A DNA stretch of 64,000 nucleotides from Hericium rajendrae (Eukaryota; Basidiomycota; Agaricomycetes; Russulales; Hericiaceae), in assembly GCA_033439255.1 (NCBI GenBank), contig CM065890.1, forward strand, positions 248,001 through 312,000. Direction: 5' to 3'. The notes beneath the pieces were generated by a model. That model was not told where the DNA came from and searched no databases. It worked only from the letters and a program-made list of their open reading frames with translations. The position numbers were made by a program, and so were the translations under genes. This document shows positions 1 through 49,731 of the stretch, piece after piece; within the stretch, counting starts at the first letter, position 1, and every line of letters begins with the position of its first letter.

Positions 1-850
1 ACGCAACAGGTTGAAGCAAGCAGGGACCGGTGTACGGCTATGGCCACGAATACAACAAGACGGGGCTGAGTGCCAGCGCAGACTGGAACGCGGCGCGCAG
101 GCTGGGCTCCGCCCAGCAGCATGCAGGCGCCGATCACGAAGGTCTTTTCCTAGTGACGCAGTCGCCGCTCAGCGCGGGCCACTGGATCCTGGATTTTCAG
201 CCGCAAAAGTGACTTCCCTGCGGATACAGGTGAGTGTCGATAGATCTCAGCTAAATTTCAGGGAATATGACTTACCAGAGCACAGCAACCGCATCTCTCA
301 CTCCCAGAACAAGCACCGCGTTCTCGCGCACATGCTGGGCTTCGCCCAGCAGCGCGAAGGCGTCGTCAACGCCAACGATGCCTCGATCACGAAGATCTTA
401 TCCTAGTGATGCAGTCGCCGCTGGGCGCGGGCCACTGGAATCCTGGAATCTGGGGGACGAGAACCGGGTTTCCTACAAGCACAGGTGAGTACCAATAAGC
501 TTGGCTATTTGAAAGGAAACTGGCTTGCCAGCATGTATACATCGTATTTCTCAGTCGCAGACACCCAGCGCGACGTAGCGTGCATCCTGGGCTCCGCCCA
601 GCAGCGCGCAGACGCTGTCAGCGCCAGCGCAGCCCCGACCACGAAGGTCCTAACCTAGGGACGCGGTCGCCGCTTGGCGCGGGCCCCGGAACCCTGGGAT
701 TTCGGCGATGAAGACTGGGCTTTCTGCAAGCACAGGTGAGCCCCGAATCTCGATCAATTACTGTACAGATCGACTTACACGCAGAGCCCAAGATCTCGCG
801 CTGTGTCCTCTACGAAGGCGTCCAGCGGGTTGCGCCCGCCTCCCGAGGAG
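1..850 (+). repeat. Array A: degenerate ~250 bp exon/intron-like repeat units
   Basis: Three to four diverged units follow one another. Splice-donor-like GTGAGT/GTGAGC sites recur at 230, 485 and 735 (spacing 255 and 250), each preceded by ACAG and the first two followed about 50 bases later by a CCAG acceptor-like site. Each unit also holds a GGGC-TNC-GCCC stem-loop (101-117, 334-350, 587-601; a weaker one near 825-839) and a GC box resembling GGCGCGGGCC followed by a CCTGG block. Short open stretches share a weak peptide motif (DAVAAxRGPL), but no long reading frame survives. The same family lies inverted at 3430-5180. It may be a decayed multi-exon gene, a non-coding transcript locus or a satellite; the sequence does not decide. 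It runs off the left window edge. Confidence 0.7.
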
Positions 851-2967
851 AGCGACGAGAGCGTCGAGGTGACGCTGAATTCGAGGGCCTAGTCCTGTAC
901 ACATGCTATTGCATCGTGGAGACCCACGATGATCATTTGCATGCATGCGACAGTTGAAGACTCCGGTGGCTGTTTATGCATGAGCTCAAGAACATAGTAA
1001 GCATGAGGACTCTGTGACAAGGATAGATACTTACAAATATTATCAGGCTGTTTGAGGGCATTTAGAGAGGCAAGGCGGGGGTTCGAATGGAATCGTGTTC
1101 GACCGCAGAAGTGCGAGGGATGCTAAAAGCTCGTCGGAGCCTCGGAAGGGTTGAGGATCTCCCGCAGCAACGTAACTGCAGTTCCTTGAAACACAGACCA
1201 TCTTCGCAATCTTCCACACTCATAAATAGAACTCTTGGCCTTTAGTCACAGACAGCGGGATTGAGTAAAATGAGCTGATCCCCAGTTGCTGTGTGAATTC
1301 TGTTTCTGCACGTACTGTCCCTCTGAGATGAGAAATATTCCTCAAGTCCAGTTCAGCTTCATGAAATAATCCCTGATGCTAGCTGGATATCTTCTCTGGC
1401 TCAAATTGTTTTCTTCAGAGTCTTGGCTCCCCTCCGGTATAAGAATCTCATATGATGGCAGGTCAGAGTCCTGCCGAAATTCACTGATCTGATGGTGTCC
1501 ACCGGCTGTCGGACACCACGGGCATCAGTCTCATTTTTGCCGGTGGAGTACGAGTCCCGAGACGGAAGGCATGGCCATGGCAGACACCAGATGCAGCCTT
1601 GAATCGAATGGTGTCTGCTGCATGAAAGCAACATAAGAAAATAGATTTGTTCTGTAGAAACTTCCTGATGCTGCAGTCAGCCTCTGCATCAAGCTGAAGG
1701 ATGAAATTAAATGGCTGAGCCATATTCTATAGCAGGAATGACCACTTCGGAGGGCACTTGCAGCGGTAAGCAGGGAAGCGACGCTTGGCACCGAATCGGT
1801 ACGCCGGTACGAACGTGATTTGAATGCTGCGCGGTGGCTGCATCTAGTCTCAAAAATAAATGTAACTAACATATCTCAACTAGGGTAATGCTCTACAAGG
1901 CAGACAAAGTAAGAGTTACAATCGACTGGAGTGCAGAGAGGTGCTGAACGGGTGCATGTCGAGATCACTGGCGGTGATGTAAAGGCACACTGCAGCCGCG
2001 GTAAATCCGATCGTTCTCATAGTCAAGTCTAATCATTAGTCTCCTACTCGAAACAAGTTCTGTTCGTCTACAAAGACATATCTGCAAAAACTCTTATATC
2101 ATTTGACATGTATGGTGGTGGCCTTTGCGAGACTGAGGGCTTAAATATTGACAGTCTGTTTCCGTCTTTTCACACAACTTCGCCGACATTCAGGCCTTCG
2201 GTAAGCTTCAAGACCCAAACTTCTTACCTGTCTCCAGAGACGCCAGGCCTGGTACCATGTTGCATACAAAATAGTGGAAATAATATTTTCTAGACTACAC
2301 AAGTAGCAATGTACCCTATGCAAGAATCGACAAGCGTACTTACCGGGGAACATATTGCATTGCCCAGGAAGGTATGAATCTGATCGGAGGCCGGAGGCCA
2401 CGAAACGCACACGTAACGAGGGGAAATGGGACTTACCGTGGATCGAGGCCCCGGCAGAATGCGCGGAGGAAGAGGTGATCCTCCGCGTGGTCGGGTGTAT
2501 AAGACCTGCCTCCGGTGCCCACCTAGTTCCCTTCGCTTCCGCTCCCCCGAGTCCCCCCAAATCTGCTCCCCCGACGTTGGAGGTCATGTCCCGCATGCAG
2601 GTCCCCGGATCGATGGCAGCGGTGATGTCGCGCACACATGCTCGGACACGACACCCGAAACCAGTTCCTTCAGGCTCACCCCCTGCTCGCTCGATGCGCG
2701 CATCGCATCGTCACTACCCAGGCCGCTAGCAGCAGCCGGTGGCTTGCATGGATGTGACACCTCACGGTCCCCTGTAGGTGTTCAAAGGACCTCTCGACGT
2801 CGCTCTGATCGCTCACCTGCAATCTTCGTCCAGGTATTCTGCGCATTCCGCATTCCTCGAGGCCTGTGCCCTCGCAGCAAACGGTGGCGCGGACGTGAAA
2901 GCCGACACCACACCGTTGGACGCGGACAACGGCACCTGTCCTTGCCACGAAGCGCAGCGCAAACGCG
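851..2967. other. No convincing gene; spacer between repeat arrays
   Basis: Open frames here are short, overlap on both strands and resemble no family I know. Minus-strand donor-like GGTAAGT/GGTGAGC strings occur near 2340, 2430 and 2815, so the minus-strand repeat locus to the right may extend into 2.2-2.9 kb. 900-2100 is AT-richer and shows nothing further. Confidence 0.5.
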
Positions 2968-3273
2968 TACTTACCGAAGAAGCCGTGTTGTGGGCCGTTG
3001 GCTGACGCAGCGTCGCCTGCGCCGTACGAAAGGGAGAAGGATGGCGGGCAGCGACGGGACCAGATATGGCGGTCATTGAGCAGAGGACTGACGGAGGGGA
3101 ATGAAGCGCGGCACAAGCCGTACGTACCAAAGAAGCCGTGTTGTGGGCCGTTGGCTGGCGCGATATCGTCTGCGCGGTGCGAAAGGGAGAAGGGTGGCGA
3201 GCAGCGACGGGACCAGATACGGTGGTCATTGAGCAGCGGACTGATGGAGGGGATATGAAACAGGGAAACCGGG
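2968..3273 (-). repeat. 153 bp direct tandem repeat, exon plus intron unit
   Basis: Two near-identical copies start at about 2968 and 3121, period 153. Read on the minus strand, each copy has an acceptor-like CAG (ATCAG or GTCAG), an exon-like block of 113 bases ending CTTCTTCG or CTTCTTTG, and a donor (GTAAGT at 2974, GTACGT in the other copy), leaving an intron-like remainder of 40 bases. The repeat is open across both copies in one minus frame (period is 51 codons), but the 113-base block is not a multiple of three, so splicing would shift frame between copies. This sits directly downstream of array B on the same strand. Confidence 0.7.
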
Positions 3274-3429
3274 AAGCCATTCGTTGGTGAGTGTTGAGCG
3301 GGGATCTGTTTTTGCATTCGAGACCTTACCTTGTCATTCGTCTCGCAGACCTTGCGACAGCATCGGCGTCGACGCTGACGTCGTGTACGCGGCACCAGAG
3401 CCAGGCGCGGCTGCATCCTGGGATGTTAT

Positions 3430-5180
3430 GTTGCCTGTACGGCGCTGTTAGGTGAGTATTTCACTGTCGAACTAGCTGAGCAAAACTGTAACTCACCAAG
3501 CCTTCAGGAAACCCGTTTTGAGGTGCCAATTTCCCAGAATTCAATGCCCCGCGGCGAGCGGCAATGCGTGCCATTAGGACAAGGACTGCGAAGGCAGCGT
3601 CAACGGCCATAGGCCGTTGACGTTGCCGGACGACGGTTGCAATCGTGCGCATGTTTCTGCGCTTGCTGGTGAGTGATCTTATCGTGGAATAGCGGGGGCG
3701 GACTGTACTCATCGTGAACTGTCGGAAGTTTCGCGCTTGAATTTCCAGGATCCAGGGCCCGCGCCGGGCGGCGTGCGCGTCCCTTGAACGAAAGATGCGA
3801 AGTCGGCGTCGAGGGGATACCGTCGACTCTCACTTCGCGGGCGGCGGGAGTCGGGCGAAGCCCGACGTACGCCCTGTGATGTGCTCAAGCTCTGCAATGC
3901 GATTTCAGTGCGTTAACAAGTCAGTTCGACTTGAAATTAGTCGATGTCAACTCAAGACTCACCGTGATGTCTAGAAACCCGTTTTATCAGCCCGGATTTT
4001 CAATCCCCAATGCCCCGGGACGAGCAGCCTGCTCGTTCGTAGACTCAGTCTCACGAAATGAGCGTCGACGGTTCCCCGTCGACGCTCACATTGCCGACGT
4101 CGGGCACAGTCTCTCGGACGCGTTGGCAGAGTGTCCCACGATGCCCATATGCCTGCACCTCGCATTTTTCGTGCCCTGGTAAGTCATTTTACATTCAAAT
4201 TAGCCGAGACAAAGACGGACTCACCGTGACCCTTAGAAAACCGCCTTTTCGCGTCCAAATTTCCAGGATTCAGGGCCCGCGCCGAGCGGCATGCGCATCC
4301 CTAGAGTAAAGCTTTCGGAGTAAGCGTCGACGCTCGCGCCCTGCATTGCGTGCATCGGGCGCAGCCCGATGTACGCCCTCTACGCCTTCGCTATACACAT
4401 TGCGTGAGGTCTGGGAACTTGCTGGTAAGTCAGTTCGTCTGGAATTTAGCCGAGTCGAACTCACGCTTACCGTGACGCCCAGAAAGCAACTTTCGTCGGC
4501 ATTTTTCCGACCTTCAAAGCCCCGCGGCGAGCGGCATCAACGTCCCTAGGGCGAATTTCACGATGTCGCGGTCGTCATCGACGGTTCGTCGATGCCGACT
4601 TCGCACGCGGGCGCCGGGCGCAGCCCGGTGCCCGCCTTTGCTTCACCCTCACGTCGCGCTGTATCGTCTTTCGTAAGTCTTTTGCATTGGGATCAGCCGA
4701 GTTAAAATGAGACTTACCAGGCGCTTAAAGATTGCTTTTGCTCGCCCGTTTTTCCAAGGTTCAAAGCCCCGCGGCGAGCGGCGGGCGTGCCCATAGAACG
4801 AATCTGTCGAGCTGAGTGTCGACGGGTTGCCGTCGACGCTCGCACTGTCGGAGGCGGAAGGCGGGCGCAGCCCGCCGCACGCCTTACCTGATGTGCGAAA
4901 GCTTTTCTGCACGCTCGTAAGTCATCTTTATCGTTACTCGCTAATGTGCTTTCGGGACTCACCTGATGTCCCAGAATATCGGTATTTTGCTCCTGAAATT
5001 ACGAGATTCAAAGCCCCGCGGCGAGCGTAATACATGCCGATAGGAAAGCGGTGGTGTTGAAACGGGCGCAGCGCGCCATGTTGCAGTCGGCACTGGAGTT
5101 GTGCATCTCTTCTGGATGATATCGTAAGTATTTTCCACGTTATATCCCGCGGATATACTCGTGCTCACCTGTCTATCCTC
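3430..5180 (-). repeat. Array B: ~245 bp exon/intron-like repeat units, inverted relative to array A
   Basis: About seven units. On the minus strand, donor-like sites (GTGAGT, GTAAGT, GTAAGC) lie opposite plus positions 4957, 4712, 4466, 4219, 3957 and 3491, with a decayed one at 3706; typical spacing is 245-262. Each intron-like segment is about 50 bases with a CTAA/CTGAT-like element and ends in TTACCAG or similar. Units contain two stem-loops: H1, GGGC-TNC-GCCC (3850-3866, 4353-4371, 4609-4633, 4860-4876), and H2, an inverted repeat of 8-12 bp (3598-3622, 4060-4087, 4576-4594, 4814-4841; a bare palindrome at 4323-4334). Stem sequences differ between units yet stay paired. A box CGCTCGCCGCGGGGCTTTGA recurs before each donor. 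Coding potential is unclear. Confidence 0.75.
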
Positions 5181-5589
5181 TGCACAGTGGCTGCAGCCTC
5201 GCATTTCGTCCCCGCCCTCTCGCTATCCCCGCCATCACGGTAGCGTGACTCTTGCGTGCTTTCTCATGCCAGATTGCATGCGGAGCGGTGGCTCGATGGG
5301 CATCGTGACGGGAGCGCTGAAGATGCGGATGACACCGTTCGTGCTATTCGTGCGAGACCGTCCCGTCGCGCATTGGTGGTCGTGTCTGGCAGTGCTCGCA
5401 GTCTTCGGAATTGTCGCGTTGACGGTGAACATGTCGGTAAGTCTTCGAGACGTACGAAGTCGTGCTGAAACTCACGTTATGTGCCTCGCAGCACCCCTTG
5501 TATGCCCTCCGCTTGCCCACGCCGATCCGCACACATCCCCACGACGCCCGCCCGCCTGGTCGTCCGATCGTGTGCGATATTCAGAACAC

Positions 5590-6613
5590 CTCGGTCGCGC
5601 TGATGAACGAGACCAAGAGCGTCATCGTCAAGTTTGACGCGCGCCGGTCACTCGTCGCCTTCATGGCCTGCCCGCGGCCTTCCTGTCGCACTTATCGTGT
5701 CTCCGCCACCTTCATCGCATCGCCGCCATCTCCACCGTGTCCTCGTCGCCTCTATCGCTCCCTCGCCTTCTTTGTAGCATTCCCGTCGTCTTCGCCTCCT
5801 GTCCGTCGACTCTGTCCAAGACTGAACGTCGCCATTGCTGCAATACGCGCTGTTCTGCAAGGTTGGTCAGTTTTTGGAGACATGCGAGGTCGCGTGGACA
5901 CTCACCCTCCGTGACCCGCGTGACCCACTTCCCAAAACCTCCCCATGACGCGCCATCTAACGCCATCCGCTCGCGTCGCGACATCTGGGCCATGCCGGAG
6001 CATCACTCCGAGGGCGTTATCGTAAAGTTAGACGCGCCGCCGGTGGTTCCGTTGCATATGCGCAGTTCGGGCATCCTCTGCGAGCTGCAGCTCTCCGCGG
6101 TTGCGCCCATTCCAGAGTTCACCCTTCCCGCGCCGTTCCCCACATCTCTCCACGTCGCGTCCTCTCCGCCTCCCATCGTGCGCAATTCCGGACACCTGGA
6201 GCGCGACGGAGACGACCACAAGGGCGTCATCGTCAAGCATAGCGTGCTCCGGTCGTTCTCTGCATACGCGTCCATCCACACGCGCCGTTTCCAGCGCTGT
6301 TTTGCGTACTTCCCGTGCATTCTACGTCATCTTCGCGCTGAGTGGCTTGACGCACCTCGGGATTCACGGTACGCCTGGCCAGTGGACTTTAGGCCCCGCG
6401 CCATCCGAAGTCGCGCGCGCTCGACTCCGGCGCGATCTACACCGAGGGCGTCATCGTCAAGTTCGACGCGCGGCGGGATGCAGACGTTGGGCGTATTCTG
6501 GCACTGTTGGCGGCGCGTTCCGCGTCGGAGGCGCGTTTGTGGCCGGAAGAAGGGCGGACTGGACGGGATGGCAGACGGTGGTATTTTCGAGGCAGATGGG
6601 CGCGTCTGTAGAT
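5590..6613 (+). repeat. Array C: four degenerate units with a VIVKFDA-like peptide motif
   Basis: A block close to GGGCGTCATCGTCAAG recurs near 5615, 6013, 6222 and 6443 (spacing about 398, 209 and 221), with a looser shared region before it. Translated in the matching frame the copies give SVIVKFDARR, EGVIVKLDAP, KGVIVKHSV and EGVIVKFDARR. The last copy stays open to a stop near 6611, whereas copies 2 and 3 are in one open frame and copy 4 in another, so either introns or frameshifts intervene. A possible upstream exon (about 5278-5432, with a hydrophobic stretch) ends at GTAAGT near 5432. I do not recognise the protein. It could be a decayed repeat-protein gene. Confidence 0.5.
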
Positions 6614-7066
6614 AGCCGGAGTGCGAGTCTGGCGGGGGAAAGACCTGGAAGCAGCGGGGAAAGTAGTCAGTCGGACTGAGTGAGCTACGCGAAAATCGAG
6701 CAAGTGAATATGCGACGAACCATGGCTGTCGGCTGCCCAAGGGGAGTAAATGTACGAGAGAGACAGCTCAAGGGGAGTAAATGTACGAGGGAGACAGAGT
6801 TTCACATTTGCCCTCGGTATTTTCGAACTGGACTGCGAGCGGCGAGTAGGCGACGAGCAGACTTGCAGGCAGCGGGAACAGATCCACCCAGCGTCCGCCC
6901 TAACCCCAGCCGCGGGTTTCCTTTTGTGGACGTCAATACTTGACGCGCATCGACCAGCAAACCTTCAGCGACCGTTTCTCCGTTTTCCTCTTCTCCTTCT
7001 CTCTTATCTGTCCTGGACGATCTTTAATATTTGCTTCCATACTAGATTTCTTCATTTCTTGTATCG
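6614..7066. other. Upstream region of the 7.1 kb gene with a 31 bp direct repeat
   Basis: Two tandem copies of a 31-base unit containing AAGGGGAGTAAATGTACGAG begin at 6738 and 6769. Further on, 6960-7060 is pyrimidine-rich, as is common just upstream of start codons in fungal genes. No other feature seen. Confidence 0.5.
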
Positions 7067-8303
7067 ATGTCTATCACCGACCGCGTATGCTTAGCTGGTC
7101 TCGACGCTATAGTCCTTCACCTCCACGATTCTGCATTCAAACCACCCACTCGTTCGCTCGCATCCTCAACACGGTCCGGGTTCACATCCAGCAGCTTCAA
7201 GCACCGCTCCAAGTCCGTCATTGGTATCCTGCGCAAGCCGCGAACCCTGGCTGTTGTGCGTCAGAATTTACACGGCATCGCTCGCTTATCTGACCTTGAG
7301 GTTTTAGGACGTCCCTCGTCCGGACCACGAGTCACGAAACAACACTCTCGCTCCTTCAGCACCACCCTCTTTTGCTACGAAAACCTCGAGCTCAGCCCTC
7401 CATTTTGTCCCGCACGCTGGCGACGGCGAGTCGCGCTTCCAGCCCCTGCCTGCCGTGTTGCTCGAAGTGGATAACTTGTTCCTGCCAAACTCGCATCCTC
7501 CGGCCTCGCCCTCGACGTCAGAACGAACGGGCCATGCTGGCACACGTGCGAATCCCGTATCTTCGCTCAATCCCGGAGACTACATCATACCCTCATTGCA
7601 GCATCCTAACAGCCCGTACATGCCCTGGGCCTCTTCCATTCGCAGCCAGATCATGCGTCCGCCCACCCCGACATCGGATCATTCTCGCCCTTCCAGTAAC
7701 TACTCTCGCCCTATGTCCAGCGCAGGCCCTCACGCCCCCGAGTCAAGACGATCATCAGGCCAGGCATCTGTCCGCCCCGCGTCCAAACCAGGCCGAATCA
7801 AATCTCTGCGGCGCTCCCTCAAGAAAAGCCTCGGCGGCCTCGTGCGCCAGCTCACCACGTACACGCGCCGCCGCCCCGACATCGTCATCGCCGCACACTC
7901 CGTGCCCGTGCTCTCCGGCCGCAGCTTCGACACAGACGACTCGCGCTCGCTTCTAACGCCCCCGACGCAGTCCGTTATCTCCATCTCGCCCTCCTCCGAC
8001 TTTGTCCATCTCGCCGAGTGGCTCGACGAGCGCAACCGCGACGCGGGTGCGGATGACGGCGTCATGATGTCCCTCGACGACTACGAGCGGCGCGGCAGCT
8101 GGCTCGCGCTCGTGCCCGACAAGGACAAGTGCTGTGGCTCGGCGTGCGGGCGCGTGTGGTGCGACGTGCATGTTCCGCGCGCGCGCAAGCCATCCATGTC
8201 CCTCCCTGCGTTGCCTGCTGCGCAAGCTTCTGCCTTCCTTTCCCCGTCGTCCATCCCTGCCCGGCCGCCTACTCATATTTCTTTGATTCTTCCGCAATCC
8301 TAG
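7067..8303 (+). CDS. Uncharacterised Ser/Arg-rich basidiomycete protein
   Basis: Two exons give about 394 residues: exon 1 7067-7255 from the first ATG of the open frame, intron 7256-7307 (GTGCGT donor, CTGAC branch-like site, TTTTAG acceptor, 52 bases), exon 2 7308-8303. I prefer this join because it is in phase and removes an in-frame TAG at 7305. The protein is mostly low complexity and rich in Ser, Pro and Arg, with a basic patch (about residues 165-200, RSLRRSLKKSLGG, then YTRRRPD) and a more ordered C-terminal third containing HLAEWLDERNRD and LDDYERRGSWLAL, which looks like the conserved core of a fungal-only family. The last 45 residues include three Cys and a Pro/Ser tail. No signal peptide or membrane segment. 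Function unknown. Confidence 0.65.
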
Positions 8304-8666
8304 ACCATCGTATCTAATCCATTTATCTGGAATTTCTTGCTGTACAGTTTATTATCTATACCACATCCGTTGACGTGACCCCGCATGCATGCATTGACAT
8401 ATTTCTTGGATCACACATATATAGACACCATTGTACTTATCTAACAGCAAACTTCAAAATGTACCATGTTACCCGTTCATAGCAATCATCACGCCTGTAG
8501 CTACAGCTGTAGACCTTTGACAACACCCCTAACATGACAAGATGTTGAGTTGGTGGTGTCTGGACCGGCCCAGCTGCAGCGCTCCAACTATGATGCTCCT
8601 CCCGCTTGCTGCACTTAAACTCTTTCTCTCACCTTTATCCTCGCCAGGACCATCCACATTCCAACG
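8304..8666. other. Intergenic, 3' flank and promoter
   Basis: 363 bases between two plus-strand genes. AT-rich, with a ATATATAG string near 8418-8425; CT-rich just before the next ATG. Nothing else recognised. Confidence 0.4.
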
Positions 8667-9680
8667 ATGACGCCCCCGCCCACCCGCGCAGTGCTCATCG
8701 ACCTCTCCGGCACAATCCAAATAGGCGCGCACGCGACCCCCGGCGCCGCATCCGCCCTCGAGCGCCTGCGCGCCGCACACATCCCCTTCCGCTTCTGCAG
8801 CAACACAAGCAACGAGTCCACCCACGCGCTCCTCGAGCGCCTGCACAACCTCGGCATCGACGTGCGCGAAGGCGAGCTCTGGACGAGCCTCCGCGCCATC
8901 GGCGCCGCGCTGCGCAGCCGCCAGTGCTCGCGGTGCGCACCCCTGTCCCTTTATACCATATCACCCGCAGTCCGGATCTGACACCTCCCACAGCCCGTTC
9001 GTAGTCGCGACCGAGCCCGCGAAGGAGGAAATCCTCGCAAGCATCGGCGCGCCCCCGCCCGCGCCGCACGAGATCCCGCCGAGCATCGGCACGCCCGCGC
9101 CCGCGGACACGCCGCACGCGGACTACGACGCCGTCGTGCTCGCCTACGCGCCCGCGCACTACGACTTCCACACGCTCAACACCGCGTTCCGCGTGCTCAT
9201 GCACGAGCTCCCCGCGCAGGCGGACACCGCGCACGCGCCGCCGCTGCCGCTCTTCGCGACGCACGCGTCGCGCTACGTCCAGGCTGCGGACGGGCGCCTG
9301 TCGCTTGGTCCGGGCCCGTTCGTTGCGGCGCTCGAGATGGGCGCGGGCGTGCGGGCGCAGGTTGTCGGTAAGCCGGAGCGCGCGTTTTTTGAGATGGCGC
9401 TGCGCAGCTTTGAGTTCGCCCCTGGCGCGGAGGGGGGGCGCATCGTGATGGTGGGGGACGATGTGCGGGGGGATCTGGGCGGCGGCGCGGCGGAGTGCGG
9501 GCTCTGGCGGGTTTTGGGTACGTCGTTTCGCGGTTGGTGCAGTGGTGTGGTGCGCTGATAGGGGGTTTAGTGAAAACGGGGAAGTATCGGCGGGGGGACG
9601 AGGCGAGGGAGGGCGTGTTGCCGCCGGATGAGGTGTGCGATTCGTTCGCGGACTTCGTGAACAAGCTGTTGGAGGGATAG
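8667..9680 (+). CDS. HDHD2/LHPP-like HAD-superfamily hydrolase
   Basis: Three exons (8667-8932, 8994-9517, 9571-9680; introns 61 and 53 bases) give 299 residues, slightly longer than animal HDHD2. HAD motif I is present near residue 12 as DLSGT, the form typical of HDHD2/LHPP in which the second Asp is Ser; the nucleophile Asp is kept. Motif II-like CSNTSNES follows near residue 50, then the C2-cap, then VVGKPERAFF (motif III Lys) and GDDVRGDLGG (motif IV acidic residues), and a family-typical VKTGKYR close to the end. This supports a magnesium-dependent phosphatase-type enzyme, substrate unknown. An Ala/Pro-rich insertion (ASIGAPPPAPHE and onward, about residues 100-125) sits between core and cap and is not in animal homologues. 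No targeting signal; cytosolic by inference. Confidence 0.9.
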
Positions 9681-10988
9681 GGATCTACATCACTTCAGTA
9701 AAAATCTGTATCTTCACTTCGAGCCTTTAATTGTATCGATAGACGCAAGTCGACGTTCCCTTGTCCCGGCTGCAGGTCGTCCGGTCAGGGGGAGAGCAGG
9801 CGGGACTCACGAGCGCGGTGATGGTCGCATTGCAGTGCCGGTTCTGTGTACAAGTTTAACCTTTAAAATGCTCTATGCTGTGTTCAACTTGTTGATTCCT
9901 CTACGCAGACACATCCCATGTGGCAAGCACAACATGCTGTGCTTGAAGACATGCGATGATAGGTCTACTTCACTCAGGCTGCTTGGTCCCGATGTTTCGG
10001 TCAAACAAGATCCGGTTAGGTGTGTCCTGCCAGAGGCCATGCTCATTACATGATATAGATTCGGGCTGTCTGTACTAACATTGTAGTTGTGATAACACGG
10101 AGGCTCTTCCCCTCCTGCGCGCTGACAGTGGCTTGGATGGACAGGGTTCTCCCTAAACGCTGTATTACCTGCTAAGTTGAAGCTGTATCGATAGATACAC
10201 GAGGGGAGCCTGGGAGCAAGCGAAAGTCGCCGTAAAACTGCTGCTAATGAAAGCCGTCCTGCGTAATAGTATCAGAATTCGGAATCATACGTCGTCTCGA
10301 GAGTATACCTGTGCCTCTAAAATGCGGGTCTTTTGTTTGAATCGAGGGACAGAGACAGACATTTCGCAGCAATTGCACGATCGCATGCTCAACTGACAGG
10401 CATGCCCAGCCGGCGATCGAACCATGTCCGCATGCTTCGCTGAGAGCTTCTCAGAAACTTTGACAGTTATTCGATACCATAGCCTTCCCGAACATCGGAT
10501 TTGGGCTGTCCTGGAAAAGTCGAAGCAGAGCACGTCACTCACCGGGTCATACTGTCAGGCTATCTTCAAGTTCAACTTGTCTCGAACACCAGGCTACGAT
10601 AATTCTCGAATGTCTTGACCGTCATAGAACATTGACCAGGTCGTCCGCGGAAGTCGAATAAAGTCAAGCAAGCAAGCGCCCAAGGCAAGTCTCGTGAACA
10701 TCTGAAAAGATGCCGCTCTGCTCAGTGCTATGCAGTACAACACTGATTTGAATTGCACCCGAGCGCACCAAATTAGCGGAAACCCGTCATTTGTCGGTGT
10801 GTTTCTCCACAATAATTAATGGATGGTCTGCTGATGGCTTCGTCTTCGCCCTTAAAATCACGGGCAATGCATGTGGTAGGCATTGCTCGTTCTCCGGACG
10901 CCGGGGAAGTAATTTAGTAGTTCAAGGCAGATCAGTCCAAGCACTTCCTCGAGACACCCACATGTGCTGAGCCCAGGCAAGGCTCGCG
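9681..10988. other. 1.3 kb intergenic, no gene recognised
   Basis: Only short unrelated open frames on both strands. No repeat, RNA gene or transposon end could be supported. It contains the promoter of the P450 gene at its right end. Confidence 0.4.
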
Positions 10989-13339
10989 ATGTCGTCCACA
11001 TCTCTATCCGATGCTCTCTCGACCATATACACATTCCTACCCCCAGGATACATTTATTTAGCCCTCTCGAGCAAGTCCTTCTATGTCCATCGCCGGGTTT
11101 TCACTTATCGTCAAACACAGCCTACCTCTTCTGCCGCTTCTTCTACCTCATTGTCCTCTACCCGCGCTACTTCTCGCCCCTCAGATCCGTCCCCGGCCCG
11201 CCGCTGGGCAGCGTCCTGCTCGGGCAGCTCTTGCCCATCGTGCGGTCGGAGGCCGGCATCCTCCAGCGCGAATGGGTAAAAGAGCATGGTCCTGCCGTAC
11301 GCGCAGTCGGGCCCTTCGGCATCGAGCGCCTCATCTTCATGAAGCCGGAGGTAATGCACAAGGTGCTCGTCGCGGACTGGCTTGAGTTTCCGCGGGTGAG
11401 CGCGATGTTGATATTGTAGCGTGCGGAGGTATCTAAGGATGTGGATTGAAGCCGACGTTCATGCGGAACATCCTGGGTATCACTGCTGGGTATGGGTTGT
11501 TGACCGTGACAGGGAACGAGCACAGGCAGATGCGAAAAGCCATGAACCCTGCATTCTCCCTCCCGAACTTGATGGCCCGTGCGTATACGCTTCGTCTCGT
11601 ATGGTCTCCTGAGCACCTAGTCTGAGGAAATCCAGAATACGACTTGTACTATGATTCCATCGAAACGTTCGTGCGCTATCGTCCTGAGTTCGTTTGATCT
11701 CATTTTGATGTTCATAGCCTGCTCGAGATCCTTGACGCTGAGCTGGATCAACAGGCCGATCCTGCAAGCGGCAAAGTCTTCCACATGTACGAGTGGGGTG
11801 TGTACATCTCAGGTTCCCACCTCTTCATCTCATAACACACCGCACCACAGCGAGCAAAGTGACCCTCGACATCATCTGCGAGACCGCCTTCGGCTACCAC
11901 TCCAACTCCCTCCGAGACCCGCACAACGAGCTCACCGAAGCCTACGAAGCCATGCTCAACCTCCAAACAGGTGCGCCCCTTTCAGTCCCCACCCGCATCT
12001 AACGCTCCCCACAGGCGCGAACCTCTCCAAGTTCGCTGCCCTCGTCTCCATCCCCGGCTCCCCCTCCTTCTGCACCTCCGCCCTCGGCTTCCGCCTCCGG
12101 CATTGGCTCGGTCTCTGGAAGCCCCTCGGTATGTACGCGCACGCGCCCCTCCTTCTCTTACTATGGCAGGATCTGACGCACGCCCCAGCGGTAGCCACGA
12201 CCCTCATCGACTCGACCCACCGCATCCGCGCCGTCGCGCGCGATATGCTCACGCAGAAGGTCGCAGAGCTCGCCGGCAACCTCGAGGACGCAGCCGCGAA
12301 GAAGGACATCATGACGCTGCTCGTGCGCGCGCGGCGCGGGGGCGAGAAGGGCGAGAACCAGCTCAGCGACGACGATCTCGTCGAGCAGGTGGTGAGCCAC
12401 GCACCTATACATAATCCCTGGATGCCGGCGCTCACATGGACGGCGTACAGCTGACGTTCCTCGGCGCGGGACACGAGACGACCGCGTCCGGCATCTCCTG
12501 GGTGCGCACTAACCCACACCCCACCCGCCCGCGAAACGACACTGACGCCCGCCCAGACGCTCTGGCTCCTCGCGAACGACCCGCGCGCACAATCCAAGCT
12601 CCGCGCCGAGGTGGCCCCCCTCTTCGCACACACCCCGCGCCCAGACTACCGCACGCTCAAGGACCTCAAGATGCTCGAATGCGTCGTGTGCGTCCCTCCC
12701 CCCGCACCCTCCCCCTCTCCGCTGAGTTCTGACCCGTGCCGGCCGCAGGATGGAGAGCCTGCGCCTGTACCCGCCCGTGCCGATGACCTTCCGCCAGGCC
12801 GCACAGGCCGCGTGGCTCGACGGCGTCTTCGTCCCCAAAGGCACGCTCCTCTACGTCCCCGTGCGCCCTCCCCCTCTCCCGTTCTGAACTCCCATTGAAT
12901 TCCGGCACGCAGATCCGCGTGATCAACACCTGTAAAGAGACCTGGGGCGCGGACGCCGAAGCCTTCGTCCCCGAGCGCTGGCTCGCGCTGCCGGACACCG
13001 TGAACCCGACGTTCTCCTTCCTGTCATTCATCACGGGCCCGCACGGCTGCATCGGCAAGACGATGAGCATCTCCGAGATGAAGGCCGTCATAGCGTGCGC
13101 CCCTCCCTTGCTTTCCTCCGCTCTTCTGTTGACGGGGTGCGATGCGGCAGGGCGCTCGTCGCGCGGTTCGAGTTCGCGCCGGCGTATGAAGGCCAGGTGG
13201 CCAAGCCCACTGCGGCGGTGACGATGAGTGCGTCTCACTTTGGTGTGCTGTCTCCTCGTATTTCTGACTATGTGTATCCGTAGAGCCGTCGGACAACATG
13301 CCGCTGCTCGTCAAGCGCGTTAGGACGCTGTCCGTGTAG
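10989..13339 (+). CDS. Cytochrome P450 monooxygenase
   Basis: An intron-rich P450. Reading through about ten short introns the order is: membrane-proximal FYLIVLYPRYFSPLR and the Pro hinge SVPGPPLG (near 11150-11210), helix C region GNEHRQMRKAMNPAF (11510-11560), I-helix AGHETTA (about 12470), the K-helix ESLRLYPPVP (ExxR, about 12755), the PERW region (about 12975), and the haem loop FITGPHGCIGK with its ligand Cys (about 13030). The stop is at 13337-13339. Haem-dependent monooxygenase of the endoplasmic reticulum, needing a CPR partner; substrate unknown. The N-terminus is uncertain: the ATG at 10989 opens a plausible hydrophobic leader, but I found no in-phase short intron joining it to the SVPGPP exon. 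The lone position gives no pathway context. Confidence 0.85.
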
Positions 13340-34337: not shown

Positions 34338-36319
34338 CTAATGGAAAGTCACGTCCTTCCCATCCCATCCTAGGTCTGCCACCTGGCGCAGAGCTGCCCA
34401 CCATTGCGGCTTCATAGCGCACTCCTGGATGCGTAGCCTCAGGTTGTGTCCCTGCGCGGCCTTACGTGCCTCCAAGTATGCTTGCAATCTAACGTGATTC
34501 AAGTTTTTCGTCGACCCCAGGTTGGCACCAAGATCGACCTGCCAGAAGGTCAGCGTCTTCAAAGCAGGAAGCAGTAACGCGACCATCGGCTGTGCACCTG
34601 CGTCTGCAGTCCGCGGGGGCTGCAGCGCCTGTGCGGCGGCCACACTGCCGGCGCCGGTGACCCAGAGTGACTCGACGGCGGGGGTGCAGTGAAGCACCGA
34701 CGCGACCTTTGGTAGATTCCATGTTGCCCCTAAACTCAACTCGTACTGTGCAGTCTGCACACTGGCAAGCGGCAGCGTGCCCAGGGTTTGCGTGAACGGG
34801 TCGATGGTATGAGTCTGCTCATGGTAGAATGGGCCTTCAACTGTCAACGCCAGCGCGAATCCAGCTGGGCGGGAGGCGGAAGGAAAGGCTACAAGAGATC
34901 GCCATACAACCATTTCGAAAGGGGGGGAGCTCTTGAAGTCCGTTACTCTGAGCGAGAGAGCCTGAATGGGCGGGGACCCTGCGTTCAAGTGCGCATGCAT
35001 GAATGATGCTACTCGCATCCATGCCCCTTCAAACGTATCTTGATCCTCGTCCTCATCAGTGACACAGTGGATGGAGACCTGCGCTGCGGCAGGGATATGG
35101 AGATGCTGGAGGAACATGCCGCATTCGCTAACGCCGTCCTCTATGTCCAAGGATTGGAGGTTGAGAAAATCTAGGACGGTATTGTCTGTCAATGCGTTCT
35201 CCGCACGCGGCGGCAAGCAGTATTTCAGCGAGAGCGTTTTGAGCACCTTCATGTGATGCAGAGCTGAAGACAACTCGAATAACAACTTGTCACTCGATCT
35301 GTCAAGATTGTTGGCCACATCTTTCATTTCCTTCCGACTCCAGGGCGCGATGTGGAGGTGTTCAAGACCGAGAAGCGTCTCTGATACTGGTGTAGTGAGT
35401 GGGGGAAGGTACGTGTATAGGTGCAGACGACGAAGCCGTGGAGCCTGCGAGGAAAGGAAGTCGGCAGGTAGCATTGGAAGTGGAACCACGTTATAAAAAA
35501 CGGGAGAGTCTCTCGGAACGTCCATTTGCATTGACTTGAGCAGCGGCGCGGGAGATCTGAGAAAATCGAACAGAGCCTTCTGAAACTCTCGGGGAAGATT
35601 TGTGAACGTGATGTCAGAAACATGAGATAAGTGTCGCGCAATCAACTCGGCGCCCTTCTCCTTTAGCTCGGCGTCCTCGTCTCTAAGCTCGGCGTCCTTC
35701 TTGCCTAGCCCGGCGTCCTCGTCGCTCAGTTCGCTGTACTCGTCGATCCATTCGCCATCTTCGTCGTCTAGCTCGCCATTCTGGTTGCCTAGCTTTCCGC
35801 CCTGATCGTCATACATCATGCGCGCCAAGTTAACACGCAGCGAAACAGCAGCACTCTTCGAGCGTTCCAGCATGGTTCGCATCCAGCGTGGGCCAAACTC
35901 GTTTGTGACCTGCGATGCCCATAGCGCTGGATGATTGATTGCAGCTGTTCGCCAGAACCTGCAGACGTAAGCCAGATTGAGCCAGCCGGGCTTGAAGCAC
36001 TTGCGCCCGGTTATAGACTCGCTGCCCCAGGATATTGGGTCTACCATGGCGCAGACGGTGAATAATCGGGTGAGAAGCTCCACAGGGAGATTGTTGACAG
36101 GAAAGGCCGCGTGTACGAGTAATTTTGACATTTTAGCTTGATTCGCTGTGAGGTGTGTGTTGGCAGAGTGCCCGTTGGTCGCATCTTGCTGCCGCGATAG
36201 ACGCCGGCTGACGGCGTCCGCCCAATCTTTGTCCTCTTGCACACTATAAATTCTTGGAATGAGCCATCGAGGAGAGAATTTGGGACATTTTGAGGTGCGC
36301 ACCTGTCGCTCGTAGACAT
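34338..36319 (-). CDS. F-box/LRR-like protein A
   Basis: Exon 1 is only 17 bases (36319-36303, ATG TCT ACG AGC GAC AG), intron 36302-36244 (59 bases), exon 2 36243-34338; 640 residues. The same tiny first exon is seen in the two paralogues at 45.6 and 47.9 kb, which fixes the start. F-box core: NNLPVELLTRLFTVCAMVD, FKPGWLNLAYVCRFWR and ALWASQVTNEFGPRWM, the usual Agaricomycete form. The rest is Leu-rich with irregular repeats (LRRLHLYTYLPPLT, LEHLHIAPW, LKTLSLKYCLPP) and ends IQECAMKPQWWAALRQVADL. A unique acidic insert of short repeats (LSDEDAGLGKKDAELRDEDA and onward, about 35730-35640) is absent from the paralogues. Probably an SCF substrate adaptor, target unknown. Confidence 0.85.
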
Positions 36320-47434: not shown

Positions 47435-47911
47435 ACGGGGAATCGAGCGGTGGAGATTCGAGTTGCTGCTAAGCTGAGTATCACGCATGATTCAATTCTT
47501 TTTCTTCATTCTACATGTCGAAGGTTTGTACCCTCTATGACCATCCACAGATCCGGAGCGTGGCCGTGTTCTGCAGATAAATTTACTGTACTTGAGTAGA
47601 GCCGAGCTGTGTGAGATAAATCGATTAAGTGGGCGCTTAGCTTCATCGCCCAGTGCCCACGCTGCGCTCATGCTGCGACGTCCTTCCGTCCACTCTTACA
47701 TTACCGTTCGATCTGTCATTTCAGCCGAAGAGCCCACCACGAAACAGCTTTTATCGCTTTCATTAGATAAAAGAGATCCGTGTCTGCCACTCGATGTCTA
47801 GGGTATCCATAATCAAAAGCTGTGTATCGTAGTTCACTTTGAAGAGCCTACGTTTGAAATCAGTCAGATCATCATTTGAGTTCTCTGCGTGGCACTTGGA
47901 AGTTCTGGAAA
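47435..47911. other. Intergenic between tandem F-box genes
   Basis: 3' flank of gene B and the duplicated promoter of gene C. No other feature. Confidence 0.45.
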
Positions 47912-49731
47912 ATGTCTGGTACGAGCAGCAGGTATGTATCATCAGTCCTTTTGACGTCTTCCCCCGATGGCTCACTCCGCGACATGTATACAGTACCGAA
48001 GCGAACAATCATTTGTTGGACGTTGGAGATGCGGTCAACGGACATCCCCCCAAGCCACCATCTGTAGCCATCCTCTGTAATGGACAGGTGCCTGTCAACA
48101 ACCTTCCTCCGGAGCTTCTCATCGGAATATTCTCCTTCTGTACTACGTTAGACCCCGTACGTTGGGTCAAGCCTTCTTCCGAATCTCAAGCTTCAATGCG
48201 CTTCAAGCCTGGTTGGCTCAACCTGACTTACGTTTGTGGCCATTGGCGAATTTTAGCGCTGAACCATCCGGCGCTGTGGTCATCCTATGCAACGAACGAG
48301 TTTGGTCTGCAGTGGATGGAGACCATCTTGGAACGCTCGATGCATATGCCTGTTTCGCTGCACTTCAACTTGGGCAGCGCGACGGCTGGCGCAATGGAAT
48401 TAATGGCCAAACATATGTTCCACGTCTCTGACATCACGCTCACCGGTCGCATGGAGTCACGGACAGCTCTTTTCAACGTTCTCGCATCCCCTGCGCCGAT
48501 GCTAGATACGATGCGAATGGAGACGGAGATGATACTACCCGAACTGGTATGCCAATCCTGGAATAATCCTGCGATCTGGATGCCAGAGCTCCCCGGAGAT
48601 ACATTTTCCTCGCAGGCTCCGCGGCTTCGTCAACTTTTGCTTGTCGACTTCTTTCCTCCACTCACTGTGCCGGTTTCACCGATATTACTTGGTATTGAGC
48701 ATCTGAGCATCACATCATGGAGCTTGAAATTCCTCAAATACAAGTTCGTGACCCACTTTCACGGCGGCTCAAATGCTGCATCGTGCTCTAAGTTGTTCAT
48801 TTTCTTGCAGCACATGAAACAGCTCAGAACGCTTGCGCTGAAATCCTCCCTGCCGCGTGTGGATAGCGCATCGACGGACAATACCATCATTGATCTTCCC
48901 TTCCTTCAATTCTTGGAGATTGATGATAATGTTCCAGAATGCAGCATCTTCCTCCAGCACATACGCATCCCTGCCACAACACAGCTGTCCATCCGTTGCG
49001 ATTGCATGGGCGACAGCCCTGCATGGACTGCAGTTACATCCTTCCTACGAGTGCATATGGACGCCGGGAGTCCACCGATCCAGGCACTCTCGCTCTCGCT
49101 CCCGGATTTCCGAACCCGCAGTCTCTGGACCTCTTTGAAAGTGGTCGCATGGCGGTCGATCGTCGCATTTCCTACAGATTCTGCCTTACCTGGCTTCGCA
49201 ATCGCGTTCTCCGTCACTGATCCCAACCGCGTCCCCAGGCGACGAAGCATGACCGCCCCGTTCACGGAGGTCCTGAACACTCTTCCGCTCGCTAGCGTAC
49301 AGACCGCGCAGTATGAGTTGCCATTGGGGGAAACATTGGATCTATTGCAGACCCTAGGTGTGATGCGCTGCACCCCCGAAGTCGAGTCGCTCTGGGTTAC
49401 AGGCCCCGGCAGTGCGGTCGTTGCGAAGGCGCTACAGCATAAGCAGACGGCATCCCAGATTGCGCCCCCAGCGCCCACGTTGGTGGTTCCTTCCCTGCGG
49501 ATACTTGGCTTCACGAAGGTCAATCTGGGTGCTAAGAGGAACACGCAGCTCGAACCTGACCACGGCAAGCTGCGAGCGAAGCTGCGAGCGGTCTTGCAAG
49601 CGCGCAAGGACATGTATGGACGCACCCTGAAGTTGTGTATACAGAAATGCACCATTACTCCGGAGTGGTTGGACAGGTTTGGGCGAGATGGCGGATGTGG
49701 AATGGGATGGGAAGAACATGAGTTTTCCTGA
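47912..49731 (+). CDS. F-box/LRR-like protein C with shifted C-terminus
   Basis: Exon 1 47912-47931 (20 bases, MSGTSS), intron 47932-47993 (62 bases, GTATGT to TACAG), exon 2 47994-49731; 585 residues. F-box VNNLPPELLIGIFSFCTTLD, FKPGWLNLTYVCGHWR, ALWSSYATNEFGLQWMETIL; Leu-rich region as in B (LRQLLLVDFFPPLTVP, IEHLSITSW, LRTLALKSSLPR, IQALSLSLPDF). Near the 3' end one extra base relative to B (around 49676-49680) shifts the frame: the predicted ending RDGGCGMGWEEHEFS replaces a family-type ADVEWDG ending that is still readable in the next frame up to a stop near 49738. The change affects only the last ~17 codons, so the protein may still work. Confidence 0.83.

What the first reader, a model, noticed from the sequence alone, without database searches (positions are those of the whole stretch)
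1..5180. Inverted pair of exon/intron-like repeat arrays with covarying stem-loops
Units of about 250 bp at 1-850 (plus) and 3430-5180 (minus) are the same family facing each other. Every unit keeps a donor, a ~50 base intron-like segment and an acceptor, plus stem-loop H1 whose stems change together: GCTGGGC/GCCCAGC, GTCGGGC/GCCCGAC, CATCGGGC/GCCCGATG, GGCGGGC/GCCCGCC, always with a TNC loop in the transcript direction. H2 does the same (CGTCAACGGCC, GAGCGTCGACGG, CATCGACG with their complements). Coding frames are poor while base pairing is kept, which points to selection on structure: a spliced non-coding RNA, circular RNAs or a satellite with a structural role. I do not know this as a described system.
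Basis: partly seen in the sequence, partly recalled or inferred. Interest (0 to 1): 0.75.

Follow-up and report, generated by a model that had tools for sequence, protein, structure and literature searches.

The report
Noncoding hairpin-exon arrays in a fungus
The window starts with two back-to-back rows of repeated exon-and-intron units that keep splice signals and RNA-like hairpins but no sign of a protein code, and relatives of these rows ride inside giant jumping genes of the same fungus, so they look like spliced noncoding RNA loci linked to mobile DNA; whether they are transcribed is untested.

Summary
In detail: about four units on one strand and eight on the other, one family, inverted; no hits in shuffled DNA. 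Hairpins H1 and H2 covary. The arrays then run outward. No coding signal. No Rfam match.
New link: units plus an 18-bp motif (382 genomic places, control 3) also occur in giant transposons (from 32 kb) with KDZ and TET/JBP domains, CA..TG ends and 7-bp target duplications, perfect in 6 of 7 copies examined. The window locus has no listed transposase and other ends, so descent from such an element is inferred. Best reading: spliced, structured noncoding RNA genes tied to giant fungal transposons. Transcription and function are untested.

The parts
1..905 (-). left array: about four hairpin exon units (transcription inferred leftwards, out of the window)
   Evidence: profile hits 122-210, 230-473, 485-724, 736-899; introns on - strand at about 528-473 and 275-218, and a doubtful one (GC donor, 76 nt) at 799-724
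3359..5187 (+). right array: eight unit hits, two of them weak (transcription inferred rightwards)
   Evidence: profile hits on the complementary strand 3359-5167; introns on + strand at about 3452-3507, 4179-4236, 4425-4482, 4917-4974, 5124-5187; the remaining units did not match the intron pattern
2416..2578 (+). Box P: conserved promoter-like block (GC-rich dyad CGGAGGA..TCCTCCG, TATAA at about 2498, pyrimidine-rich stretch) reading into the right array
   Evidence: alignment of six copies from five loci, profile hit E 1e-34, window copy included in the profile
4353..4371 (+). example of hairpin H1 (CATCGGGC GCA GCCCGATG); GNA loop on the inferred transcript strand
4059..4088 (+). example of hairpin H2 (TGAGCGTCGACGG TTCC CCGTCGACGCTCA)
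5437..5491 (+). intron-like segment after the right array, before the stretch with motif A
5618..6461 (+). four copies of motif A (core GGCGTCATCGTCAAG) at 5618, 6013, 6223, 6447 with 1, 2, 0 and 0 mismatches, downstream of the right array; the left counterpart lies outside the window at C13:247579-247596 (-)
906..2415 (.). central spacer left of Box P; no Box P hit for the left array, one TATAAG on the - strand near 2098 (unproven)
6914..9490 (+). segment with a direct 92.5% copy at C13:243092-245689 on the other side of the locus; about 9.2 kb lies between the two copies

Best explanation
The two arrays are the exon bodies of a divergent pair of spliced, structured noncoding RNA transcription units. 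Shown: repeated exons of about 190 nt with covarying hairpins H1 and H2, separated by introns of about 57 nt whose donor, branch motif and acceptor are kept best on one strand; a TATA-box promoter-like block (Box P) upstream of one array at most array loci held; an 18-bp motif A repeated downstream; related exon units plus motif A inside recently mobile giant transposons with KDZ and TET/JBP domains. Inferred: RNA polymerase II transcription from Box P, splicing, and an RNA-level role of the hairpin exons. Most likely role (inferred, weak): the RNA serves the mobile element or its derivatives, for instance by keeping its ends transcribed and well spliced so that they escape RNA silencing, or as a bound scaffold at element ends. 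The window copy is a relative without a listed transposase, probably an old derivative.
For: Intron ends do not covary, as expected of independent signals. Box P: 14 genomic places, plus the window, two C11 loci and C4:530k by profile, with near-constant dyad-TATA spacing in six copies; in the 14 places it points towards the nearest array cores listed. Noncoding: 458 substitutions over a C1 array without a consistent codon phase (169/160/129 in all), 29 of 38 indels not multiples of 3; 54 exon lengths with remainders 1, 0, 2 in 22, 18, 14. Ten frames without Pfam match at E 1; one 159-aa query without protein relative. Covariation. Folding z mean -2.7, 34 of 48 at -2 or lower. H1 loop GNA on the transcript strand in 46 of 48 (that GNA loops are stable is recalled). 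Intron pattern in seven array regions: 30 on the transcript strand, 23 on the other, background 0.04-0.11 per kb. Mobile link.
Against: No expression data. Exons with an open frame: 28 of 54 against 23 expected on the transcript strand, 34 against 21 on the other. The best spliced frame exceeds all eight shuffles in 4 of 6 loci (207, 259, 262, 253 aa), there outside the arrays; the other strand reaches 309 aa. The left array of the window, locus L042 and the giant copies L059/L060 have no Box P hit. Apart from units and motif A the right 12 kb of a giant element shares no DNA with the window locus.
Confidence: 0.55

Rival explanations
1. Small-RNA source: hairpin exons and inverted arrays make double-stranded RNA that feeds an RNA-interference pathway, against or on behalf of the giant transposons. 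In Cryptococcus stalled spliceosomes can trigger siRNA production (PMC6643885, passages read, citing Dumesic 2013), so intron-rich noncoding transcripts could be read as a signal.
For: Inverted array pairs and hairpins; homologous units in recently mobile transposons.
Against: Hairpins are short (stems of about 7-14 bp) and arrays diverged; splice signals are well kept, not poor. No small-RNA data.
Confidence: 0.15
2. DNA-level subterminal repeats: palindromes, inverted arrays and motif A are sites for a transposase or a replication factor, and introns are incidental.
For: Inverted symmetrical layout at several loci; motif A repeated in otherwise mostly unlike DNA; no strong strand bias of folding.
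Against: Stem sequences change while pairing stays, unlike a sequence-read binding site; branch-to-acceptor spacing and TATA block point to transcription. Motif A itself may well be such a site.
Confidence: 0.15
3. Decayed or fast-evolving protein-coding gene with duplicated exons.
For: Exon/intron layout; exons open in one frame a little above shuffles; GC-rich open stretches; spliced frames above shuffles in 4 of 6 loci, outside the arrays.
Against: No consistent codon phase in substitutions, mostly out-of-frame indels, exon lengths not multiples of 3, no Pfam hit in ten frames, no homologue of the one frame searched. A pseudogene should lose splice signals as fast as frames.
Confidence: 0.07
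4. No selection: hairpins are kept by mutation (palindrome correction by template switching) and similarity among units by gene conversion and recent duplication.
For: Very short perfect palindromes can be corrected mechanistically (recalled); tandem 12-13 kb copies show recent duplication.
Against: Does not explain conservation of donor, branch motif, acceptor spacing and promoter-like block among units with a mean column identity of 62%.
Confidence: 0.08

Closest known systems
KDZ superfamily DNA transposons, Kyakuja branch with TET/JBP (PMC12730594, passages and section 3.2.1 read)
   Same: The giant elements that carry related units have a KDZ transposase domain match, a TET/JBP match, 5'-CA..TG-3' ends and 7-bp target duplications.
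   Different: Longer than the 9-11 kb KDZ elements reported in Cryptococcus (PMC12810828, passages read); inverted repeats of about 334 bp just inside the ends, where the two Laccaria Kyakuja families are said to have none; noncoding exon array as cargo. Transposase phylogeny not done; the KDZ matches cover positions 76-217 of 217 with one or two stop codons read through. The window locus shows none of these features.
Introner-like elements / stwintrons of fungi (PMC4457414, PMC8469720; search listing with start of abstract only)
   Same: Repeated short spliceosomal introns.
   Different: Here the repeated unit is exon plus intron in tandem in a locus without coding signal; the covarying hairpins lie in exons.
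Satellite or tandem-repeat noncoding RNA
   Same: Tandem repeats, no protein.
   Different: Short arrays, dispersed, promoter-like block, kept splice signals.

Membership tests
KDZ transposon (the giant element carrying related units) | KDZ transposase domain PF18758 | tested here: met
   a listed match over cut-off in 15 of 15 element intervals, with stop codons read through; same offset of 6431-6432 bp in the four copies compared by hand
Kyakuja (giant element) | 7-bp target site duplication | tested here: met
   7 of 7 letters in six copies, 6 of 7 letters in the seventh; seven copies examined
Kyakuja (giant element) | 5'-CA..TG-3' termini | tested here: met
   seven of seven copies examined
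Kyakuja (giant element) | no terminal inverted repeats (as stated for two Laccaria families) | tested here: not met
   334-bp inverted repeat at 96-98% in the paired intervals, ending 12 bp inside the ends; so filed as KDZ, Kyakuja-like only
KDZ transposon (the window locus) | KDZ transposase within the locus | tested here: not met
   nearest listed match C13:195292, outside (its list is cut, so a weak match could be missing)
KDZ transposon (the window locus) | terminal repeats like those of the giant element | tested here: not met
   no similarity to a 600-base piece holding the right end of the C2 element
Long noncoding RNA gene | transcribed and spliced | not testable with these tools
   no RNA data
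Long noncoding RNA gene | no coding constraint | tested here: met
   with the reservations given under evidence against
Introner-like element | near-identical introns in many unrelated coding genes | not tested
   coding genes were not surveyed
Known RNA family | match to an Rfam model | tested here: not met
   window 1-8000 and L021 searched at E 1: one match of E 0.6 below gathering, at 7163-7256, outside the arrays

The most novel reading that the evidence does not exclude
A new kind of RNA module: arrays of spliced, hairpin-bearing noncoding exons that travel as cargo of giant TET/JBP-carrying KDZ transposons and also persist as promoter-driven, tandemly amplified loci, acting as a transposon-borne RNA that controls silencing or mobility.
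Probability: 0.2. Interest if true: 0.85.

Novelty: new variant of a known kind. Interest (0 to 1): 0.62.

Why it matters
If transcribed, this would be a sizeable noncoding RNA family in a probable mushroom-type fungus in which the kept features are exon hairpins and splice signals, and it would be noncoding cargo of giant transposons, where to my knowledge (recalled) mainly protein cargo is described. The prediction is sharp (strand, introns, start region) and can be settled with strand-specific RNA-seq.

Tried and rejected
Rejected: protein-coding repeat; intron ends as a stem; known RNA families; inverted host duplication as the cause of the inverted arrays (the copies at C13:234-237 kb and 243-246 kb have another centre or orientation). 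Led nowhere: exact 18-mer scan of viral contigs gave five contigs with one match each, not followed; a plasmid search found nothing; covariance model R1 was built but never used, since the own genome is not searchable by model. Papers: one search returned none; in searches none of the listed titles and abstract starts describes such arrays, but only 15 of 168, 15 of 53, 10 of 10, 5 of 5, 20 of 36 and 8 of 12 papers were listed, open-licence papers only. Rows dropped: 60 full-length distinct units, 55 after removing those over 93% alike; 48 of 55 in the alignment used for pair counts, loops and folding (seven divergent ones left out); 54 of 55; 35 of 48 in the model alignment.

After the filing check I corrected: unit counts on the minus strand, the H1 loop count (46, not 42, of 48), the number of Box P loci aligned, and added results against the reading. 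One search was a filing attempt with wrong field format.
Full report
Setting. The window is C13:248001-312000 of a 46.8-Mb, 19-contig genome.

The observation. A profile built from units finds them in the window on both strands and in the other array loci held, with no hit in shuffled DNA. The core GCCGCTCGGCGCGGGCC (up to 2 mismatches) has 224 places in the genome against 42 for the reversed control. On C4 a + core and a - core about 4 kb apart occur four times at a spacing of 12.8-13.0 kb (listed places), and at C8 and C11 similar pairs are listed. On C1 six Box P places lie 11.6-13.7 kb apart, and the arrays held there all run in one direction. So the inverted pair is a recurring but not a universal layout.

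Hairpins. On 48 units H1 pairs in 96% and H2 in 86% of cells, with changes on both sides in 3 of 7 and 8 of 10 pairs; double-change cells are 52 against 17.9 +- 3.2 when shuffled. Relatedness inflates this, but the slid controls fall far below. H3 is kept only in its inner part. Single-strand folding is on average better than dinucleotide shuffles on both strands (mean z -2.7 and -2.5).

Strand and introns. The ends of the intron-like segment, GTRAGY and RCTYAC, are complementary but vary about independently, so they look like signals and not a stem. Branch letters also fit this direction better. A block of about 160 bp with a GC-rich dyad, a TATA box and a pyrimidine-rich stretch is conserved in six copies from five loci and points into an array in the proposed direction at the places compared. 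The arrays of the window would then be transcribed outward, left one leftwards, right one rightwards, followed by further introns and the stretch with motif A. Only the right array has a Box P hit.

Coding. Two diverged copies of the C1 array differ by 458 substitutions, 169/160/129 over the three phases, and by 38 indels, 29 of them not multiples of three. Exon lengths leave remainder 1, 0, 2 in 22, 18 and 14 of 54. The best spliced frame in six loci is 144-262 aa; four of the six exceed all eight block shuffles and these four lie outside the arrays, the other two lie in or partly in an array and do not exceed the shuffles; the opposite strand gives 89-309 aa. Ten frames gave no Pfam match and the one frame searched has no protein relative. 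Against this, exons with an open frame are somewhat more frequent than in simple shuffles, 28 against 23 and 34 against 21 on the two strands.

Mobile link. Motif A (GAGGGCGTCATCGTCAAG, up to 2 mismatches) has 382 places against 3 for the reversed pattern. Copies with constant spacing led to C2:306501 and C3:879001, 98.5% alike over 4.9 kb, each with four array units. A 2-kb flank has 15 full-length matches at 99-100%, itself included, and the right end is the same in 12 other copies matched from the start of the query plus three partial ones. Pairing ends by position and strand, which I did by hand, gives 13 intervals with both ends, 32 to 84 kb long, the long ones probably with insertions; two more intervals lack a clean right end. 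Seven copies were examined at both ends: CA..TG termini in all seven, 7-bp target duplication perfect in six and 6 of 7 letters in one. All 15 intervals hold a listed KDZ match and a TET/JBP match, one of these below cut-off. 25 of the 100 listed motif A places (of 382) lie in these intervals, which make up 1.4% of the genome. Array units were seen by sequence in two copies only.

What the window locus is. It shares units and motif A with the giant elements but not their end sequence and, for the right 12 kb compared, no other DNA; no KDZ match is listed in it (list cut). It lies between direct copies of a segment (C13:243092-245689 and window 6914-9490, 92.5%), with about 9.2 kb between. It may be an old derivative of such a transposon, or the transposon may have picked up a host module; the data do not decide.

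Verdict. Real, without coding signal, structured and probably spliced, most likely on the strand opposite to the one assumed; tied to giant KDZ transposons. Whether it is transcribed, and what the RNA does, needs RNA data.

Noticed in passing
genome-wide; window 5618, 6013, 6223, 6447: An 18-bp motif (GAGGGCGTCATCGTCAAG, up to 2 mismatches) has 382 places in mostly unlike DNA, many of them near arrays; its function is unknown.
   Followed up: partly
C2:275773-313562 and 12 other intervals with both ends: Recently mobile giant KDZ transposon (32 kb and more) with TET/JBP match, near-terminal inverted repeats and 7-bp target duplications; an F-box-like frame (just below cut-off) lies next to the array, and by eye one copy interrupts an aspartyl protease-like frame.
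   Followed up: partly
window 6914-9490 and 8808-12089: Segment with phosphatase- and P450-like frames (named by eye) has a direct copy at C13:243092-245689 (92.5%) and inverted copies at C13:234-237 kb (up to 92.6%).
   Followed up: partly
C1:4.92-5.00 Mb, C4:3.15-3.19 Mb, C8:2.08-2.11 Mb: Array or motif A loci recur in tandem at about 11.6-13.7 kb; three of four C4 Box P copies are identical.
   Followed up: partly
window 2949-3259: 153-bp tandem duplication (two copies, 86%) between Box P and the right array.
   Followed up: no
window 34338-36302 and 47839-49731: Long frames with F-box-like matches, the second over the curated cut-off, the first below.
   Followed up: no
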